This document shows positions 3,618 through 43,594 of a stretch of DNA of 64,000 bases, piece by piece. The notes under the pieces are model-generated. The model had not been told where the DNA came from, made no database searches, and saw only the letters and a program-made list of their open reading frames with translations. The number at the start of each line of letters is the position of its first letter. Position 1 is the stretch's first letter. Source of the DNA: Candidatus Gastranaerophilales bacterium. Its GTDB lineage: Bacteria > Cyanobacteriota > Vampirovibrionia > Gastranaerophilales > Gastranaerophilaceae. The DNA is taken from assembly GCA_944326425.1 (NCBI GenBank), contig CALVDX010000003.1, forward strand, positions 62,001 to 126,000. Direction: 5' to 3'. The position numbers were made by a program, and so were the translations under genes.

Positions 3618-4688
3618 TTAACCTCCCCAGTCAAATACTGAGGAAATAGCATCATCAATCAAGGACTGTACGGATTCAATTTCTGTTTCTATCGCAGAAA
3701 GTTCTGTAGAAAGATTTTGAAGTTCAACATCCCAATAATCTTCTTTGGCAGAAATCTTTTCTTTTTCGGCATTATACCAGGCAGTGATTTCTTCTTGCTC
3801 TACAGAGTCCCTGCGTTCAGTTACAAATGCCGCGTTTAAATAGTATTGAAGGGAAGTTCCTGCTTCATACTCACCATAATCATCTACTGTCTGCAGGTGA
3901 AATATACCGCTGGTTAGAGCATTGCTGATATAATCGCTGTCGCTAAGATTACTTGTATATTCAGTTGTCCATCCGTTTGAAGCGCAAGCCTGAAATATAG
4001 GTTTATAAAAATCTACCATTTGTTGGTAAGCTTCGACACGTGTAGAAGATGTAAAACCGCCTTCAACAACTGTTCCATCCTCTTTAGTTCCGTCAATATT
4101 TGTAGTTGAGAGCCCCAAAGTCTCCAGAGCTGCTGTATCGTTATTATAAACAGCAATAATTGCCTGGTATTCAGTAGAGCCTTCGCTAAATCCCATATAG
4201 TTTGCAATAATCTGAGGTATGTAAGAAGCTTTAAAAGTACTTCCTCTACCGCTGCCGTCGCATTTTACATCGTCTCCGCAGGTTGCAATAATGGCATTTG
4301 CATACTCGTTATTTAAAACAACAAGCCCCCGGTAATCTGTTAGTATTACAGAATTATCTGTTTTGGTTACAGGAGTACTTGAAGATGTAATTCCATATTC
4401 TGCAGCAATATCAGAATCTGTTATCATAGAAGCAGCGTAGCTGTCAACAAAAGAGCTCTTTAATGAACTGTCCCCCATTAAGTAGCTGTAAGTGATAGGA
4501 ACATAGGCGCCGTCGCTGTAATAGTTTATCTTTTTATTTTGCAGTTTACTGTAATACTCTTGTGATAATTCACTTTGTTCACGGGAAAGAGCCAGTTTCT
4601 TGTTAGAAACAAGCATTGTTTCAAGTTCATTATCAGCTTTTCTGCTGATAAGGGTCAATAATCTGACTTGTGAACATGCTAAACCCAT
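3618..4688 (-). CDS. lineage-specific protein of unknown function (MGLACSQ-type N-terminus)
   Basis: A 356-residue protein with no domain I can name. The N-terminus MGLACSQVRLLTLISRKAD followed by a Glu-rich helix and SQEYYSKLQNKKI is, from memory, shared by a family confined to gut Melainabacteria. The middle (residues 60-250) is Ser/Thr/Asp/Gly-rich, like an exported or surface protein, yet there is no signal peptide. The C-terminal 80 residues are coiled coil and end in FDWGG. A good ribosome site (AAAGGAG) precedes the ATG. Lack of a Sec signal next to flagellar genes makes type III-like export conceivable, but this is speculation. Confidence 0.7.
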   Translation of the reverse strand: MGLACSQVRLLTLISRKADNELETMLVSNKKLALSREQSELSQEYYSKLQNKKINYYSDGAYVPITYSYLMGDSSLKSSFVDSYAASMITDSDIAAEYGITSSSTPVTKTDNSVILTDYRGLVVLNNEYANAIIATCGDDVKCDGSGRGSTFKASYIPQIIANYMGFSEGSTEYQAIIAVYNNDTAALETLGLSTTNIDGTKEDGTVVEGGFTSSTRVEAYQQMVDFYKPIFQACASNGWTTEYTSNLSDSDYISNALTSGIFHLQTVDDYGEYEAGTSLQYYLNAAFVTERRDSVEQEEITAWYNAEKEKISAKEDYWDVELQNLSTELSAIETEIESVQSLIDDAISSVFDWGG

Positions 4689-4719: not shown

Positions 4720-4766
4720 GTGTTATCGGCACTTTTTAGGAAAACTTTAATTTTTTAAAAGAAAAT

Positions 4767-36034: not shown

Positions 36035-39000
36035 TTAATCTCCGAAGATAATAAACGGAATATCGTGTTCTATTGCATAATCTTGCAAGAATTTTGTTCT
36101 GTCGTACGCTGATTGCCTTTGCGCTCCGTTATAACCGCGATCAGCTTTGCCGATTTCTGTTTTACCTAAGAAATCAAGCGGGTTTCCGACAGTTAGATTT
36201 ATATCCCTCTCATAGGCAAAGACTGCCATTACCTCTCTGGGGTTAGAGCCGTACATTTCATTGTATCTTGTGTTAGAATTAATTGACGCATATGCTTTTA
36301 TCAGCTGCTCTCTGTATTCCGGCGGTTCAATTTCGTTTAAGGATTTGTTTTTGTTTGCTTCAACAAAACGTACATACTCCGCATCATTCATGCCGGTAGC
36401 TTCTTTAACGAGATCAGAAATATAAACTCTGTCATATTCCCCTATTCCGCCAAATACGTAATCTCTTTTAAAATCTTCGATAAACTTTCTGAAGCCGGAG
36501 CCTGCATTCGTGTTTCCTCCGCCGTGAATGTATTTTGTGTCAAAATCAAGTACTACTCCCTGCGGGCGGAAGAAACGGTATTTGGATTCGGGACGTTCTG
36601 CATAACTTATGGATAACAAGACATCAGAGTCTATTAGTGAGAATGCATCAAACTTGGCAAGCTGGTTTTCGTAATCAAGTCCGTGTACAAAGAATTTTAT
36701 ATTCCCTGTGTTAACATTTTCTGTAAGTTCACTGCCTTTTTTATCGCTGCCGGCTTGCGCTGTATACCCTCTTGATACCGAGCCTTGCGGGAAGCCTATA
36801 GCCTCCCAGTCCTCAACTTCGTTAAACTTAATAACAACAAGCCCGTCAGAACGTTTGTATACTCCTTTAATATTGGTGCTGCCGTCCGGATTAACTGTAG
36901 TTATTGCCTGATTAATTTTACTTGCCTTTGGAACTTTTGTAACTGGTAAAATAGGTTGTGATACTTTTAGTTCGTCAATATAACCTCTTATTCTTTGAGC
37001 GTAAATATCTGCTGATTGACCGAAACTTCTTACATTCCCGTTAAAATCCGTCCTTGCCTTACCTGTAGCAGAGTCATGGAAGGAATTGTCTGTTTTTACT
37101 GCTTTCAGGTCTGCGTGGGTAAACATTAATGCCATATCAAAAAGATTATCATACTGCAGGTCGTAGGCAACGGATTGCAGACGTTTTGTTAAATCAGCCT
37201 CTGATTTTGCAGTGTTTGCATAAGCCAGCCATTCGTGATGTCTTGTAAGTGTGTACAGCTTAATTTCTTCATCTCTTGTGAGATTAAACTTTTTACTTAT
37301 AAAGAACGTATCAAAGCTGCCTTGAGCAGCGTGAGTTCTGTCGCTGAACCCTTCTTTTTTAGTAACATCATGCAACAGGGAGGCAAGCATCATTATCTTT
37401 TTATCAGAGTCGTTCAGAGTTTGGAATTTGGGATCCTGCGTTACTTTTTGCATAACTTTAAGCGAGTGTGTAAAAACGTCATAATCGTGCGCACCGTGCT
37501 GTGTTTTCCCGATTTCAGTTCTTAATTCGGGTATTATGTCTACAATGTCGTTCAAAAGCTTTTCAACCTGAGGGTTGCTGCATCTTATCGGATTTTGTTC
37601 TGAAAAACGGATAACATCGGGGCGGAGTGCTTCAACTACGGCTTTTGTATTCGGGTCTGTAATATCTGCCAGCTTTTTGCCGTTGTTGAGGTTTACCGGA
37701 TAACCCGTTATAGAAAATCCCGTTTTATTTTGTTTGTTGTGGTGGAGTTCAAACCCGAAGTAGTCATAGACTTTTTGTTGTTCGTTTCTTGACAGTTTTT
37801 TTATTTTTTCAAGCACGTTAGTAATAAATTCATCTTTAGAGTACTCCTGCCTGATTTGTAAATTAGAAAAATCTGTATCGGAAAGTTTTGCAAGGTTAGA
37901 GGCAAGACTGCTCATATTTTGATTAAATTCCGTTATTCTTTCAGGCGGTTCAATTGTTCTAATATCAACACCTAAAGATTTAACAATAGCCGGCAGCAGT
38001 GAACAGTAGGTTTCGCTGTCAGTCGGAATGAGCGGGAAATGTTTCTTTAAGTCATCGCTTATATTAAACAATGCCGCGTTGTTGGCTACAAGCTTACGTA
38101 AAAGGTTTTGTTTCCCTTCCATCGGAATTTCGTTAATATTTGTTTTGCCGTATAAATCAAGGTTTTGTGCCGTAAATAGAAGATCTGACTTTGAAAGTTG
38201 CAAAACTCTCATAAGTCTTTCATTCGAAAGAATTTCATCAGCACTCATTACTTTATCAGAAGTGTCTGCATTCTTAAATATATAGAATGCAGTTTTCATA
38301 ACATCAGTGTTATTATACAGTTTTTCATCTGAAAGAATTTTATCAGCAAGTTTGAATTGTTCTGAGTTCTCAATATTAAAAAGTATATCTCTTGCTGTCA
38401 CCATGTAATTTCTATTATTATACAATTTTTCATCGGAAAGAAGCTTATCAAGAATTTGAATTTTTGCAATCGCGCTCTCATGACTAGTAGTATTTTTAAG
38501 TATCTCTCCTATATGATTGCCCATTAAACATCCATTGTTATACCATTTTTCATTAGAGAGAATTTTATCAATAAGCATTAATTGGTTGGGAGTGTTTGTA
38601 TACGTAAGTATTTGGTATACAGAATTTATGATGTGGGTATTATTATACAACTTTTCGTCAGAAAGGATTTTATCAGCAAGCATTACTTTATCAGGAGTAT
38701 TTGCCTCCTTAAGTATATTGTGTGCAGTCTTCATAACATTAGTGTTATTATACAGTTTTTCATCCGAAATAATCTTATCAAGAATTTTAACTTGTTCCTG
38801 TGTATTAATCCAAAAAATACTACCTTTTTCTTTATATGATACCCCATCATTCCATACAACTGCATTGTCACATAGTTGATGCATCAACATGTCATTGTTA
38901 TACCATTTTTCATCAGAGAGAATTTTATTCATAATTTGAATGTTATATTCATTCCAGTCATAATGGACAGTCATATTAAGTTTTTTTAGTTTAGTTTTAA

Positions 39001-39724
39001 CATCATTTTTCATTTTATTAAATTCTTCAATTGACAAATCTTCCTTAAATGACGGAATTGCGTTGTTTTTTTCCTTCGCCAAAGACAAAACAACAAATGC
39101 AAGTTCGTTTTCATCCCTGGCTTTGCAAAGAACGCGGTTGTTTTCTTTTATGTTATACGTTCCATCCTTCATTTTTTCGATTTTGACATTAGAGAGGGCG
39201 GATGCATTCTGGCTTGCACCGTGCATTCTGGCACCTGCAATCATCATCCCGAAGTTCATAAGCCCGTTTTGTTCAAGTGATTCTCTTAGGGAAAGGTCCG
39301 ATGTTAACCTGTCAAAGAGTACATCTGCTGTCGTTTCGGTAGTTGTGCCTGCAACAAGAGTAAATTTGTGGGAAGAGATAATTGATTTAAAGAAGTTGGG
39401 GTTTTTAGAGAGGACTTTTTGAACAGCATTCCCGAGCGGTCCTGAAACGTACGCAGCGAAATAGTTGTACATTAAACCGCTTTTTAATTGTTCCCAGGCT
39501 TCTTTACCTTTGTCTAAAGTTAACCCCTCGTTACTTGTAAGCCCTCCTACGATTGTCTCTGCCGCGGAGAGAGCCGCCATAGATGTGGTCATACCGGCTT
39601 TAAAAACCTGCTTACCCGCTATTGTCCCGAGGGTTTTCACTGCTTTATTCTTTAACATAAGAACCGTGGCGGATCCTGCGGTTAAAAAAGAAGTACCGAT
39701 TATTGCCGCGGTCTCTAATAACAT
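36035..39724 (-). CDS. large HD-domain protein with tandem repeats (second half of a stop-interrupted ORF)
   Basis: 1229 residues from the first ATG. Layout: hydrophobic N-terminal region (1-60, Gly/Ala/Thr-rich), a soluble region, seven degenerate repeats of about 35 residues with the core ILSDEKLYNN (residues 268-535), an HD-type metal phosphohydrolase domain (about 743-875: H753, LLHD at 783-786, RHHEW at 828-832, D872), and a C-terminal domain of about 300 residues ending FIIFGD. The ATG has no ribosome site, and the frame continues upstream to a single TAA that ends the 324-residue ORF. It may be one broken gene, or a second cistron. I know of no named homologue. Confidence 0.6.
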   Translation of the reverse strand: MLLETAAIIGTSFLTAGSATVLMLKNKAVKTLGTIAGKQVFKAGMTTSMAALSAAETIVGGLTSNEGLTLDKGKEAWEQLKSGLMYNYFAAYVSGPLGNAVQKVLSKNPNFFKSIISSHKFTLVAGTTTETTADVLFDRLTSDLSLRESLEQNGLMNFGMMIAGARMHGASQNASALSNVKIEKMKDGTYNIKENNRVLCKARDENELAFVVLSLAKEKNNAIPSFKEDLSIEEFNKMKNDVKTKLKKLNMTVHYDWNEYNIQIMNKILSDEKWYNNDMLMHQLCDNAVVWNDGVSYKEKGSIFWINTQEQVKILDKIISDEKLYNNTNVMKTAHNILKEANTPDKVMLADKILSDEKLYNNTHIINSVYQILTYTNTPNQLMLIDKILSNEKWYNNGCLMGNHIGEILKNTTSHESAIAKIQILDKLLSDEKLYNNRNYMVTARDILFNIENSEQFKLADKILSDEKLYNNTDVMKTAFYIFKNADTSDKVMSADEILSNERLMRVLQLSKSDLLFTAQNLDLYGKTNINEIPMEGKQNLLRKLVANNAALFNISDDLKKHFPLIPTDSETYCSLLPAIVKSLGVDIRTIEPPERITEFNQNMSSLASNLAKLSDTDFSNLQIRQEYSKDEFITNVLEKIKKLSRNEQQKVYDYFGFELHHNKQNKTGFSITGYPVNLNNGKKLADITDPNTKAVVEALRPDVIRFSEQNPIRCSNPQVEKLLNDIVDIIPELRTEIGKTQHGAHDYDVFTHSLKVMQKVTQDPKFQTLNDSDKKIMMLASLLHDVTKKEGFSDRTHAAQGSFDTFFISKKFNLTRDEEIKLYTLTRHHEWLAYANTAKSEADLTKRLQSVAYDLQYDNLFDMALMFTHADLKAVKTDNSFHDSATGKARTDFNGNVRSFGQSADIYAQRIRGYIDELKVSQPILPVTKVPKASKINQAITTVNPDGSTNIKGVYKRSDGLVVIKFNEVEDWEAIGFPQGSVSRGYTAQAGSDKKGSELTENVNTGNIKFFVHGLDYENQLAKFDAFSLIDSDVLLSISYAERPESKYRFFRPQGVVLDFDTKYIHGGGNTNAGSGFRKFIEDFKRDYVFGGIGEYDRVYISDLVKEATGMNDAEYVRFVEANKNKSLNEIEPPEYREQLIKAYASINSNTRYNEMYGSNPREVMAVFAYERDINLTVGNPLDFLGKTEIGKADRGYNGAQRQSAYDRTKFLQDYAIEHDIPFIIFGD
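38122..38923 (-). repeat. coding tandem repeats, about 105 bp units
   Basis: Seven copies encode the core ILSDEKLYNN or close variants (ILSDEKWYNN, IISDEKLYNN, ILSNEKWYNN, LLSDEKLYNN) at residues 268, 318, 353, 388, 428, 463 and 498 of the protein starting at 39724. Spacing is 35 residues except for two copies with 5 and 15 extra residues. Such arrays change copy number easily. Confidence 0.85.
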
Positions 39725-39775
39725 TGCATTGGTTTGGGATGAGGTAATAAATTTTTCTGTTATTTCATCAGCGTT

Positions 39776-39778
39776 TTA
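39776..39778 (-). other. in-frame TAA separating two ORFs of the same frame
   Basis: The frame starting at 40750 ends here (last residues NAMGE) and is open again for 1247 codons to 36035. The junction reads GAA TAA AAC with no frameshift. Removing the stop would give one protein of about 1570 residues. Confidence 0.9.
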
Positions 39779-40750
39779 TTCTCCCATTGCATTTTTGTAG
39801 GCGGTTTTAAAGCTGCCCTCCAACTCTTCGCGGTTAAAGGATTTTGCTTTTTTATCGGCTTCGTTTTTTGCCTCCGCCAGAATTTGAGTAAGTTTTTCTT
39901 TTAATTCAGTATCGTTCTGACATTCCTGCTTTAAATTATCAATGTATGCCTTAGCATCGTTACCAAGGATGGGAGATAAGAGTGCCGCAGGTTCAAAGCT
40001 GTCAAAATCTGTACCTTTAATTTTTTCTATCCCGAATTCAAAGTATTTGCTTAATGCTTCGCAAGTGTTTAATTCATTTAATTGACTGTTAACCTCACCA
40101 AGCTTTTTAAAAGCTTCCGGATTAAAATCAATGCCGTAGAGATTTTTAAATTCTTTAGCAAACTCGTTTTGTTTTTTTGTTTTTGATTTTAATTGATTAA
40201 GCTTGTTGATTTCGTTTTGGAGTCCGTCCTCGTATTCAAAGACTGTACCGAAATCATTTCTTCCGGTAATAGAATCAAACAGTCCGTTGCCTATGACATT
40301 AAAACCCTGCCATACCGCATCAAAAGAAAGATATCCGATACTGTCATGGTACCCTTTAACTTTTGAGTATGCAGTATTAGCAATCCCTGATAAAATATTA
40401 ACCGCATCTTCTCTTGCCTGATTATCTTCTTTAGCCCATTTGGGAGCGGCAGGTTTTGCAGCAGGAATATCGTGAAACGACTCAAGGTAGGATTGTTGAT
40501 TGTTATATCCCCAGATGCTGCCTGACTGCCGTGCCATTTTCTGCATGCGGGAGTATATTTCACTGTCGGAGCCTTCTTTGGTATTCATCCAGGAAGCAAA
40601 GTCTGATTGAGTGAGGGCATTTTGAGAGAGCATAAATTGAGCAATTTCGTATTTCGTAAACTTTTTCCCCTGTTTACGTTCTTCGTCCTTCAACTCCTTG
40701 ATATGCGACTGCGTATAGCTGTCGATTTTTGCCGATATTTCATTGCCCAA
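39776..40750 (-). CDS. lineage-specific protein, first half of a stop-interrupted ORF
   Basis: 324 residues, charged and mostly helical, with no signal peptide. The N-terminal region (MGNEISAKIDSYTQSHIKEL, then FTKYEIAQFMLSQNALT) is followed by an Ala/Lys linker and coiled coils with NKLNQLKSKTKKQNEFAKEF and repeated Leu-Asn patterns. Start is TTG at 40750 with AAGGAAGG 9 bases upstream. The promoter region lies in the left inverted repeat at 40767-40797. Function unknown; see the in-frame stop. Confidence 0.65.
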   Translation of the reverse strand: MGNEISAKIDSYTQSHIKELKDEERKQGKKFTKYEIAQFMLSQNALTQSDFASWMNTKEGSDSEIYSRMQKMARQSGSIWGYNNQQSYLESFHDIPAAKPAAPKWAKEDNQAREDAVNILSGIANTAYSKVKGYHDSIGYLSFDAVWQGFNVIGNGLFDSITGRNDFGTVFEYEDGLQNEINKLNQLKSKTKKQNEFAKEFKNLYGIDFNPEAFKKLGEVNSQLNELNTCEALSKYFEFGIEKIKGTDFDSFEPAALLSPILGNDAKAYIDNLKQECQNDTELKEKLTQILAEAKNEADKKAKSFNREELEGSFKTAYKNAMGE

Positions 40751-40766
40751 TGCGGATTACCTTCCT

Positions 40767-40797
40767 TTATGCATCGTTTTATACTTTATGGTGTATA
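40767..40797. repeat. left 31-bp inverted repeat
   Basis: Pairs with 41156-41186, 30 of 31 bases complementary (one G/A difference). It lies just upstream of the ribosome site of the gene starting at 40750 and contains TATAAA (40783-40778, minus strand), a candidate -10. Confidence 0.9.
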
Positions 40798-40840
40798 TAT
40801 CGGTATAATTTAGTAAAACTTTAGTACTTTAGAGTATATT

Positions 40841-40856
40841 TTTACAAAAATTTACA
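40841..40856 (-). promoter_or_regulatory. TGTAA direct-repeat motif inside the inverted-repeat element
   Basis: Sense strand TTTGTAAATTTTTGTAAA, half-sites 10 bp apart, nearly identical to the site at 4767. It lies 70-85 bp upstream of the start predicted for the gene at 40750. Confidence 0.5.
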
Positions 40857-40928
40857 AAGGGGTAGAAATAATAATTTTAATTCACCCTCTGCGAAGTGAG
40901 CCATCAATGTTAGTGAAACAGTTACAGG

Positions 40929-40968
40929 GCGGGCATTGTTTGAGGTACGAAATACCGAGTTTGCCCGC
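40929..40968. repeat. hairpin in the 40767-41186 element
   Basis: GCGGGCA (40929-40935) pairs with TGCCCGC (40962-40968); an inner GGTA/TACC pair flanks the loop CGAAA. Confidence 0.6.
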
Positions 40969-41024
40969 TTGATGTTGAACTATACAATTGATGAGCGAAC
41001 GCAGCAATAGGGTGGCGGTTTTGC

Positions 41025-41048
41025 GTCTCTTTTGCCGCCAAAAGAGAC
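41025..41048. repeat. hairpin in the 40767-41186 element
   Basis: A perfect 10-bp stem GTCTCTTTTG/CAAAAGAGAC closes the 4-base loop CCGC. No T run follows, so it is not a simple terminator. Confidence 0.75.
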
Positions 41049-41155
41049 CCCGTCCGGAGGACCCGCCGGAGGCGATGTTGAAATAATAAAATCCTACTGG
41101 GTACGAGGGTGCATAGCAGTCCGATAAAATAAATATTTACCCCCTTTCAGGGGGG

Positions 41156-41186
41156 TATACACCATAAAGTATAAAACGGTGCATAA
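41156..41186. repeat. right 31-bp inverted repeat
   Basis: Mate of 40767-40797. It reads toward the helicase gene at 41300, as the left copy reads toward the gene starting at 40750; each copy contains TATAAA pointing outward. Confidence 0.9.
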
Positions 41187-41299: not shown

Positions 41300-43594
41300 A
41301 TGTACGATTTTCCATTTGAGCTGGATGATTTTCAAAAACAGGCATGTGACTATATTTCCAATGGAGAAAGTGTCGTTGTCTGCGCACCAACGGGAGCAGG
41401 AAAAACGGTAATAGCAGAACACGCTATTCACTGTGCACTTAAAGAAAACAAAAGAGTATTCTATACAACCCCTTTAAAGGCTCTTTCTAACCAGAAATAC
41501 AGAGACTTTGCAAACAAATTCGGCGAGGATAAAGTCGGACTTTTAACCGGAGATACATCCTGTAACCGCGGGGCACAAATAGTCGTTATGACAACGGAAG
41601 TATTCCGCAATATGCTTTATGGTACAAACTTCGGGTCTGTTACGGATAATTTGAAAGAGGTTAAATATATTGTACTTGATGAAGTCCATTATATGAACGA
41701 TGAGCAGAGGGGAACTGTTTGGGAAGAAAGTATAATCTACTGCCCGACAAATGTTCAGATTATTGCCCTCTCTGCGACCGTCGCTAATGCAGATGAACTT
41801 ACCGGATGGATTAATACTGTACATTCAAAAACAGAACTTGTAAATACTGACTTTCGTCCGGTGCCTTTGAGATTTTTTTACTTCGATTCTTCACAGCCTG
41901 ATAAATTGCTGCCTTTATTTTCACCGGGCGGCGCTTTAAATAAAAAAATCAAGCCTGAAAAGAAAAGCTTTAAGCACGGTAAAATGGCCCAAAGAAGTGT
42001 AGTAAAAGATGTTATAAGAAACCTTCATGAGCAGAATATGCTTCCTGCTATATACTTTACATTCTCAAGAAAAAAATGTGATGAGCAGATGGAAAAATGT
42101 ATTTCTCTATCCCTTGTTACTCCTGCAGAACAGAAAAGATTACGAGAAATAATTGATGAATATATTGCGGAAAATCCATACCTGTACAAAAATAAGCACA
42201 TTGATTATCTTTTATCAGGTGTAGCATCGCATCACGCAGGACTTCTGCCGGGTTGGAAAGTACTTGTAGAAAAATTATTTCAGGAAGGACTTATAAAAGT
42301 TGTATTTGCTACAGAAACACTTGCTGCCGGTATCAACATGCCGGCACGCTCAACAGTTATAAGTTCTATCAGCAAGCGTACAGATTCGGGACACAGAACA
42401 CTTACTCCGAGCGAATTCCTTCAAATGTCAGGTCGCGCAGGGCGCAGAGGGATGGACGAAGTAGGCTATGTTACTATTGTCGGCACTCCTTTCCAATCTC
42501 CTGAAGAAGTAGCGGAACTGGTATTAAGCGATGCTAATCCGCTGGAAAGCCGTTTTGCTCCAAGCTATTCAATGGTTTTAAACCTCTTGCAGCGTTTTAC
42601 GGTTGAAGAAGCAAAAGAACTTATTTTAAAAAGCTTCGGCTACTACTCAGCAGGTTCGCGATTATCACCATTGTTTGCACAGCAGGAATTAAACGAAGAA
42701 AAAATTGAAGAGTGTGAAGCCTTTAAATGCCCGCACAGGTTAACAAATGACAACCTGCTCAGATATAATAAAGTGCGGGAAATGTACGTTGCAAACAGAA
42801 GGACGCTGAAAACCATAAGGAAACAGGAAGAAAAGAAAAAAAGAGAATTATCTCAGGAGTTCTATGAATTTGAAAAACAAACAAAAAAACTTTTGCACGA
42901 AATGCATTCTTCGCCCTGTGATGTGTGTAAAATGTTTAAAAAACACATGAAGTGTATAGAAATACTTGAAAGATATAAGAAAAAACAGGAGTCGCTTAAC
43001 AAGGAAATTGAACGCAAGCGCGATATTTTCTGGAATATCTTCCTTGCGCACCGCGATGTTTTAAAAGAATACGGATACATCAAAGATGACTACCCGACAG
43101 AGCAGGGGATAATGATTTCTCAATTCCGGTCGGAAAACGAACTGTTTTTAGCCCGGACAATAATTCAAAATGTATATCAAGAACTGACTCCGGCAGAACT
43201 TGCAAGTGTTGTTTGTGCAATTACTACGGAAGATATGCGTAATATAGAAATTCCCTATTTACCGCTGTCACGTCCGGTTAAAAAAGCTATTAATAAAATA
43301 AAAGATATTAGACGTGAGCTAGATAAAATTCAGAAAAAATATCTTATAGAAGATGTAATGTATATTAATACATACTTCTGCGCCCTCATAGAAATGTGGG
43401 TAAACGGAGCAGAGTGGGATGATGTCGTTGACCAGTCTAATGTCAGTGAAGGAGATCTGGTAAGGGCTTTCAAACGGGTTGTTGATGTATTGAGACAGTT
43501 CTGTACAATACAGGGTGTTCCGGAAGATATTGTATTTACCGCGCGCGAAGCAATTGACTGTATTCAGCGCTCGCCAATAGATATTGATAATTAA
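41300..43594 (+). CDS. Ski2/Mtr4-like superfamily 2 RNA helicase (DEVH box)
   Basis: 764 residues. Motif I APTGAGKTVIAEH at 31, motif Ia TTPLKALSNQKY, DEVH box LDEVHYMND near 134, SAT motif ALSATVANADEL near 160, motif VI QMSGRAGRRGMD near 375. A winged-helix/ratchet and DSHCT-like C-terminal region follow, containing a CPC/CK cluster (SPCDVCKMFKKHMKC). This protein type is common in Cyanobacteria and Actinobacteria and is thought to unwind RNA for exonucleases. AGGAG precedes the ATG. The stop overlaps the convergent gene by 4 bases. Confidence 0.92.
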   Translation: MYDFPFELDDFQKQACDYISNGESVVVCAPTGAGKTVIAEHAIHCALKENKRVFYTTPLKALSNQKYRDFANKFGEDKVGLLTGDTSCNRGAQIVVMTTEVFRNMLYGTNFGSVTDNLKEVKYIVLDEVHYMNDEQRGTVWEESIIYCPTNVQIIALSATVANADELTGWINTVHSKTELVNTDFRPVPLRFFYFDSSQPDKLLPLFSPGGALNKKIKPEKKSFKHGKMAQRSVVKDVIRNLHEQNMLPAIYFTFSRKKCDEQMEKCISLSLVTPAEQKRLREIIDEYIAENPYLYKNKHIDYLLSGVASHHAGLLPGWKVLVEKLFQEGLIKVVFATETLAAGINMPARSTVISSISKRTDSGHRTLTPSEFLQMSGRAGRRGMDEVGYVTIVGTPFQSPEEVAELVLSDANPLESRFAPSYSMVLNLLQRFTVEEAKELILKSFGYYSAGSRLSPLFAQQELNEEKIEECEAFKCPHRLTNDNLLRYNKVREMYVANRRTLKTIRKQEEKKKRELSQEFYEFEKQTKKLLHEMHSSPCDVCKMFKKHMKCIEILERYKKKQESLNKEIERKRDIFWNIFLAHRDVLKEYGYIKDDYPTEQGIMISQFRSENELFLARTIIQNVYQELTPAELASVVCAITTEDMRNIEIPYLPLSRPVKKAINKIKDIRRELDKIQKKYLIEDVMYINTYFCALIEMWVNGAEWDDVVDQSNVSEGDLVRAFKRVVDVLRQFCTIQGVPEDIVFTAREAIDCIQRSPIDIDN

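What the first reader, a model, noticed from the sequence alone, without database searches (positions are those of the whole stretch)
40767..41186. 31-bp inverted repeats around a noncoding 358-bp segment between divergent genes
30 of 31 bases match. Each copy contains an outward TATAAA. The segment carries strong hairpins and one copy of the shared regulatory motif. The structure fits a MITE-like element that supplies promoters, or an invertible promoter segment of the kind known in gut bacteria; inversion would swap which gene faces the regulatory motif.
Basis: partly seen in the sequence, partly recalled or inferred. Interest (0 to 1): 0.7.

Follow-up and report, generated by a model that had tools for sequence, protein, structure and literature searches.

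The report
Invertible flagellar-type promoter in gut bacterium
A 420-base stretch between two genes of an uncultured gut bacterium (Candidatus Gastranaerophilales) is one copy of a family of promoters that flip by DNA recombination at 31-base sites, so related species have the same genes switched on or off; such switches are known elsewhere, but I found no report of them in this group.

Summary
The inverted repeats are real: 40767-40797 and 41156-41186, 30/31 identical, 358 bp apart, none expected by chance. The segment is one of a family of small elements found only in five of seven sampled species of this Gastranaerophilales genus. Each element has one promoter end (P), a sigma-28-type promoter (TAAAGTTT-N11-NCCGATA) plus a TTTGTAAATTTTTGTAA box reading outward through the 31-bp site, and one promoterless end (D). 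The middle is unrelated repeat filler. The repeats are not transposon ends. The inner half of each site goes with the element end (P or D; permutation p<0.0005); the outer half stays with the flank (p=0.65). The central 6 bp match within each of eight complete elements but differ between elements (p=0.0016). At five homologous flanks, different species carry opposite ends; one gene start is at P in two species and at D in a third with the promoter pointing away. In one assembly the same prepilin start is joined to both P and D. Best reading: an invertible promoter (inverton) family controlling prepilins and large repeat proteins. In the window the promoter faces the gene at 39776-40750; inversion would aim it at the helicase at 41300. 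Inversion of this copy, and the recombinase, are not shown. The MITE reading is rejected.

The parts
40767..40797 (-). P-site: 31-bp recombination site at the promoter end (TATACACCATAAAGTATAAAACGATGCATAA read inside to outside); central hexamer AGTATA; falls in the 5' leader of the left gene
41156..41186 (+). D-site: 31-bp recombination site at the promoterless end (TATACACCATAAAGTATAAAACGGTGCATAA); central hexamer AGTATA, same as the P-site
40798..40823 (-). sigma-28-type promoter TAAAGTTT-N11-ACCGATA reading leftward through the P-site
   Evidence: 2 matches in the window with 0 mismatches, 0.05 expected with up to 1 mismatch; FliA/WhiG sigma factor present over cut-off
40842..40858 (-). 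TTTGTAAATTTTTGTAA box, at near-constant distance upstream of the -35 in P-ends and in many site-less promoters of the genus and family; possible activator site
40879..41074 (.). core: a separate ~196-bp dispersed, hairpin-rich repeat that also occurs without sites or promoter; replaced by unrelated sequence in other elements, so filler
41140..41155 (.). CCCCCTTTCAGGGGGG hairpin at the inner side of the D-site, similar hairpins at several other D-ends
39776..40750 (-). gene now faced by the promoter: first 324 codons of a large repeat protein; reading frame interrupted by one in-frame stop and continuing in frame to 36035; 95% identical protein in G006, no Pfam or NCBIfam family
36035..39724 (-). 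in-frame continuation of the same coding region
41300..43594 (+). DEAD/DSHCT helicase gene on the promoterless side; would be faced by the promoter after inversion; has its own upstream TTGTATAAT-like sequence

Best explanation
The 420-bp segment is a member of a genus-specific family of invertible promoters (invertons). A site-specific recombinase, most likely a tyrosine recombinase, exchanges strands at the central ~6 bp of two inverted 31-bp sites, flipping the segment between them. In one orientation a sigma-28-type promoter with a TTTGTAAATTTTTGTAA box transcribes outward through its site into the gene on that side; in the other it points at the opposite flank, in several cases a terminator or the 3' end of a neighbour. 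Targets across the genus include prepilin-like genes and large repeat proteins. In the window the promoter now faces the gene at 39776-40750 (ON state for that gene); inversion would aim it at the helicase at 41300. Shown: anatomy, family, half-site behaviour, matched centres, opposite ends at homologous flanks. Inferred: the enzyme, sigma-28 dependence, switching within a living population, and that this particular copy still flips.
For: Site family in G000, G001, G004, G005, G006 and absent from G002, G003; genome-wide pattern scan finds it only in Gastranaerophilales-type MAGs. P/D architecture at 43 sites. Inner half-sites differ by end type (between-minus-within distance 1.22, p<0.0005) and outer halves do not (-0.11, p=0.65): the crossover lies at the site centre. 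Central dinucleotide/hexamer identical at both ends of 8/8 complete elements, varying between elements (p=0.0016), and in inverted, not direct, register in the five elements with a non-palindromic centre. Opposite ends at homologous flanks: gene MGDGQ... P in G000 and G006, D in G005 (85% over 1.9 kb, same position), with the G005 promoter pointing away; flank STGLVKTSF... D in G000, P in G005 and G006; flank MKSLAEF... P in G005, D in G006 (80% over 3 kb); prepilin 1 P in G000, both P and D in G004; prepilin 2 D in G001, P in G004. G004 contigs C18 and C7 share exactly 119 bp beginning at the first base of the site and running into one prepilin gene, one joined to D and one to P. Sites pile up at contig ends, as expected where an assembly graph branches.
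Against: The window locus itself shows no flip between species: relatives have no site upstream of the helicase and the G006 counterpart has lost its P-site. Contig-end enrichment is also expected from repeats alone. The G004 case could be two copies of a prepilin gene rather than one gene in two states (either way the element is reversed relative to it). No recombinase gene is linked to most sites. The left gene carries an in-frame stop, so this copy may serve a decaying gene.
Confidence: 0.82

Rival explanations
1. MITE-like transposon: the 31-bp repeats are terminal inverted repeats, moved by a DDE transposase in trans, and the promoter is cargo.
For: Dispersed copies in one genome and in relatives; terminal inverted repeats; no coding capacity; several copies lie in gene-poor spots.
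Against: No target-site duplication at eight complete elements; the middle is not conserved between elements (G004 middle unrelated); a single site with no element (flank, site, prepilin) occurs in G001:C14; inner but not outer half-sites track the element end; opposite ends at the same site base in homologous loci.
Confidence: 0.06
2. Xer/dif-module-like system: the sites are dif-like and host XerC/XerD shuffle promoter modules bounded by inversely oriented sites, as in Acinetobacter pdif modules. This is a rival for the enzyme and for the reach of the system, not for inversion itself.
For: The consensus shares CATAATG(T/C)ATATT with the E. coli dif sequence as I remember it (18/28 matches for the best variant, 0.06% of shuffles); identical central 6 bp in partner sites, the same rule reported for pdif inversions (PMC13141974); full-length Xer-type recombinases are present; flank partners are exchanged between loci.
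Against: The XerD arm (TTATGTTAA) is not conserved here, and other site variants are no closer to dif than shuffles (p 0.06-0.2); the chromosomal dif of these genomes was not found in the DNA held; G002 and G003 have Xer-type genes but no sites.
Confidence: 0.25
3. Rearrangement by ordinary homologous recombination between dispersed repeats (cores and promoters), with the 31-bp arms as bystanders.
For: The core is a dispersed repeat; flank partners were swapped between loci (G006:C53 D-flank is homologous to the G000:C26 D-flank, 85% over 3.6 kb, while its P-side gene is homologous to the window's).
Against: Junctions change at the centre of the 31-bp site, not in the core; G004 elements flip relative to the prepilin gene although their middle is unrelated to that core; 31 bp is short for efficient homologous recombination.
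Confidence: 0.08
4. Fixed promoter with a palindromic leader: the arm is a conserved 5' leader hairpin of a sigma-28 regulon, and the second arm is a chance duplicate.
For: The site lies just after the -10 and is internally quasi-palindromic.
Against: Most promoters of the same type lack it; second sites occur at the far end of every complete element with matching centres.
Confidence: 0.02

Closest known systems
Bacteroides fragilis Mpi-controlled invertible promoters (at least 13 switches; cited in PMC5386303)
   Same: Many scattered promoters bounded by inverted repeats with a common core, apparently served by an enzyme that need not be linked to them
   Different: Site sequence, promoter class (sigma-28-type here), targets (prepilins and large repeat proteins here), and phylum; the enzyme here is not identified
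Clostridioides difficile RecV switches (cwpV, flagellar switch: 154 bp between 21-bp inverted repeats; PMC5386303)
   Same: Small intergenic invertible segment in the 5' leader; small tyrosine recombinase as likely enzyme type
   Different: There the flagellar switch acts after transcription initiation; here the segment carries the promoter. Repeats and spacing differ
Salmonella Hin/fljB switch (from own knowledge)
   Same: Invertible segment that carries a sigma-28-dependent promoter
   Different: Hin is a serine invertase encoded inside a ~1-kb segment; here no gene inside and a tyrosine-recombinase-like site geometry
Acinetobacter pdif modules (PMC13141974)
   Same: Short modules bounded by inversely oriented sites; recombination needs a matching 6-bp centre; partners shuffle
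   Different: pdif modules carry genes on plasmids; XerD arm not conserved here

Membership tests
Inverton / invertible promoter | Short inverted repeats (10-40 nt) flanking an intergenic segment | tested here: met
   31-bp arms, 358 bp apart; range from PMC11892184
Inverton / invertible promoter | Promoter inside the segment, reading out of one end only | tested here: met
   sigma-28-type promoter at the P-end only
Inverton / invertible promoter | Partner sites share the crossover sequence in inverted register | tested here: met
   8/8 complete elements
Inverton / invertible promoter | Both orientations observed | tested here: met
   Met for the family between species and within the G004 assembly; not for the window's own copy
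Inverton / invertible promoter | Both orientations in one clonal population (reads) | not testable with these tools
   no read data
Inverton / invertible promoter | Identified recombinase acting on the sites | tested here: inconclusive
   Small (~180-aa) tyrosine recombinases, with weak but significant similarity to the FimB/FimE-type DNA invertase models, occur in all seven genomes including those without sites; none linked except G006:C53, 8 kb away
MITE | Target-site duplication flanking the terminal repeats | tested here: not met
   none seen at eight complete elements
MITE | Conserved whole element sequence between copies | tested here: not met
   only sites and promoter are shared; middle differs
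dif/Xer module | Site with dif-like XerC and XerD arms around a 6-bp centre | tested here: inconclusive
   18/28 to E. coli dif for the best variant, but XerD arm not conserved
sigma-28 regulon | TAAAGTTT-N11-GCCGATAA promoter and a FliA-type sigma factor in the genome | tested here: met
   dependence on the sigma factor itself not testable here

The most novel reading that the evidence does not exclude
The promoters form a genome-wide shuffling network rather than independent switches: because elements of a genome share compatible sites, recombination between different elements moves a limited set of sigma-28-type promoters among many prepilin and large repeat-protein genes and at the same time exchanges chromosome flanks. 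Two different promoter ends converge on one prepilin start in the window's own assembly by exactly one 77-mer (C18 end, C25 start), and flank partners are swapped between species.
Probability: 0.25. Interest if true: 0.72.

Novelty: new member of a known kind. Interest (0 to 1): 0.52.

Why it matters
Phase-variable promoters are well studied in Bacteroides, Clostridioides and enterics. I found no report of them in the gut relatives of Cyanobacteria (searches; open-access papers only). A family of switches that couples the flagellar-type promoter class to prepilins and large repeat proteins would give these uncultured bacteria on/off surface variation, would explain why their assemblies break at these loci, and can be tested directly in existing metagenome reads.

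Tried and rejected
MITE/transposon reading (no target duplications, middle not conserved, half-site behaviour). TATAAA as outward promoters (not conserved among sites). Integrase-type attL/attR reading: it would need the centres in direct register, but the five elements with a non-palindromic centre are all in inverted register. A flip at the window locus itself was looked for and not found: the helicase has unrelated upstream DNA in all six relatives. The reciprocal flank of the flipped MGDGQ locus in G005 was searched for and not found in that assembly, so that flip is shown from one side plus the promoter direction. Co-occurrence of a recombinase group with the sites: not clear, small recombinases are in all seven genomes. 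Chromosomal dif not found in the DNA held. Viral contigs hold no such site. Flagellin promoters of the own genome do not show the same strict motif, so the regulon may not be a simple flagellin regulon.

Full report
WHAT IS THERE. The inverted repeats are as described: 40767-40797 and 41156-41186, 30 of 31 bases, 358 bp between, extending to 44 nt at 84%. A 23-nt core of the arm at up to 3 mismatches has exactly these two matches in the window and in the whole 2,009,762-bp, 40-contig genome, with 0.00 expected in the window. The segment is intergenic between a leftward gene (39776-40750, minus) and a rightward DEAD/DSHCT helicase gene (41300-43594, plus). The genome is flagellated (eight flagellin-domain matches, a FliA/WhiG sigma factor over the curated cut-off). 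Its congener G006 is deposited as a Candidatus Gastranaerophilales MAG (CALUTH01; identical site coordinates).

PROMOTER. Just inside the left arm, reading left, lies TAAAGTTT-N11-ACCGATA (40798-40823, minus), the sigma-28 layout known from enterics (own knowledge). With up to one mismatch it occurs twice in the window against 0.05 expected, both with none; the other copy is at 4724-4749 (minus), upstream of 3618-4688. A TTTGTAAATTTTTGTAA box lies about 18 bp upstream. The same box plus promoter, without any 31-bp repeat, precedes many genes in this genus and in other genera of the order. So the promoter is an old regulatory module, and the 31-bp site is an addition placed between the -10 and the ribosome binding site.

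FAMILY. Searching the genome with the 446-bp region gives a mosaic: complete elements at C3 (the window), C18 and C28; the core alone at C7 and C2; promoter ends at C5 and C25. The core (40879-41074) is therefore an independent dispersed repeat and only filler: G004 elements have an unrelated middle between the same kind of ends. A sequence model of the 31-bp site finds it in G000, G001, G004, G005 and G006 of the genus, and not convincingly in G002 or G003. A pattern scan of 84,980 bacterial and archaeal species hits only three of these MAGs; the window's own genome may be left out of that scan. Viral contigs give none.

ANATOMY OF AN ELEMENT. Every complete element has one promoter end (P: promoter, -10, site, flank) and one promoterless end (D: often a CCCTTTCAGGGGG hairpin, site, flank), the two sites inverted. 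I split each site into an inner half (positions 1-13) and an outer half (19-31) and asked which follows the end type. Inner halves are more alike within P or within D than between (difference 1.22, no permutation of 2000 within genomes reached it); outer halves show nothing (-0.11, p = 0.65). So inner halves belong to the element and outer halves to the flank, which is what repeated crossover at the centre of the site produces. The centre itself (TRYATA or AGTATA) is the same at both ends of all eight complete elements (AGTATA/AGTATA in the window; TACATA, TGTATA, TGCATA elsewhere), p = 0.0016 by shuffling partners. The eight are not fully independent (C28 and G006:C7 are homologous; the two G004 elements are similar). 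In the five elements with a non-palindromic centre the two centres are in inverted register, as needed for inversion and unlike attL/attR of an integrated element.

ORIENTATION CHANGES. Homologous flanks carry opposite ends in different species. (1) The gene beginning MGDGQIDGKFVITNGG: P in G000:C28 and G006:C7, D in G005:C64, at the same position; in G005 the promoter lies at the far end and points away from the gene. (2) The 3' flank of the gene with STGLVKTSF: D in G000:C18, P in G005:C101 (read from the five bases CGATA left before the contig end) and G006:C28. (3) The flank of MKSLAEFISEKREKAG: P in G005:C93, D in G006:C27, 80% over 3 kb. (4) Prepilin 1: P in G000:C5; in G004 joined to D on contig C18 and to P on contig C7, the two contigs sharing exactly 119 bp that begin at the first base of the site. 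(5) Prepilin 2: D in G001:C17, P in G004:C30. In G001, contig C14 joins the same prepilin start to another flank through a single site with no element, sharing exactly 77 bases with C17, the usual overlap of SPAdes contigs at k=77 (own knowledge); the two ends on MKKQK... in the window's own genome (C18, C25) also share exactly 77. Several P-ends face terminator-like hairpins or 3' gene ends (G001 C10, C30, C33; G005 C101, C130), which is where an OFF promoter would point.

FLANK EXCHANGE. The gene at 39776-40750 is 95% identical in G006:C53, but its D-flank there is homologous to the D-flank of a paralogue on G000:C26 (85% over 3.6 kb), not to the helicase flank; upstream of the helicase the six relatives have other DNA and no site. 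Thus elements also take part in larger rearrangements. Whether these run through the sites or through homologous recombination is not settled.

THE WINDOW'S COPY. Both sites are intact, nearly identical, and have the same centre, so this copy looks able to invert; no direct evidence shows that it does. The promoter now faces the 39776 gene. Its frame has one in-frame stop after codon 324 and then continues in frame to 36035, where G006 reads on, so the product may be truncated in this MAG. Inversion would put the promoter about 110 bp before the helicase start.

ENZYME. Candidates: small tyrosine recombinases of about 180 aa (G000:C1, around 64056-65265, where an active-looking copy lies beside a paralogue that appears to have lost catalytic residues, judged by eye), similar in size and weakly in sequence to the FimB/FimE-type invertase models (E 3.6e-8), and full-length Xer-type recombinases. 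Both kinds are in all seven genomes, also those without sites, and none is closely linked to a site except in G006:C53 (8 kb). The best site variant resembles E. coli dif in its centre and one arm (18/28, 0.06% of shuffles), but the other arm and other variants do not. I leave the enzyme open.

COMPARISON. It works like the multi-locus invertible promoters of Bacteroides fragilis (Mpi) and the RecV switches of C. difficile (PMC5386303), with a promoter class like that of the Salmonella Hin switch (own knowledge). The matched 6-bp centre is the same rule as reported for pdif modules (PMC13141974). The open papers searched gave no report of invertible promoters or phase variation by inversion in Gastranaerophilales or Melainabacteria. 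I judge it a new family of a known kind.

Noticed in passing
window 36035-40750 (-): A ~1570-codon frame with a single in-frame stop after codon 324 (frame continues without shift); the G006 homologue reads through there. Degenerate repeats with the motif KILSDEKLYNN, and a weak GlnD-like region further on.
   Followed up: partly
window 4724-4749 (-): Same sigma-28-type promoter plus TTTGTAAATTTTTGTAA box, without recombination sites, upstream of 3618-4688 (protein starting MGLACSQVRLL). Similar proteins (MGxxSSQARLL) follow the same promoter in other genera.
   Followed up: partly
window 40879-41074: A ~196-bp hairpin-rich dispersed repeat, also present in other genera of the family (G019 and others), independent of the promoter and sites; possibly its own mobile repeat.
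   Followed up: no
L182 (G000:C1) near 64056-65265; L190 (G004:C21) near 72837-73976: Tandem pair of ~180-aa tyrosine recombinases, the second apparently lacking the catalytic histidine and tyrosine; an unlinked single copy of the second type is in G006:C40.
   Followed up: partly
L112, L113 (G000:C28 end, G000:C7 start): Two related flagellin-domain proteins with frames of about 1010-1019 aa, both within 400 bp of contig ends.
   Followed up: no
L078:8239-8859 (G004:C18): The prepilin gene at the D-end appears frameshifted compared with the G000 homologue, and its contig end overlaps two other contigs (C22, C19) by exactly 141 bases, so it may be a collapsed two-copy repeat.
   Followed up: partly
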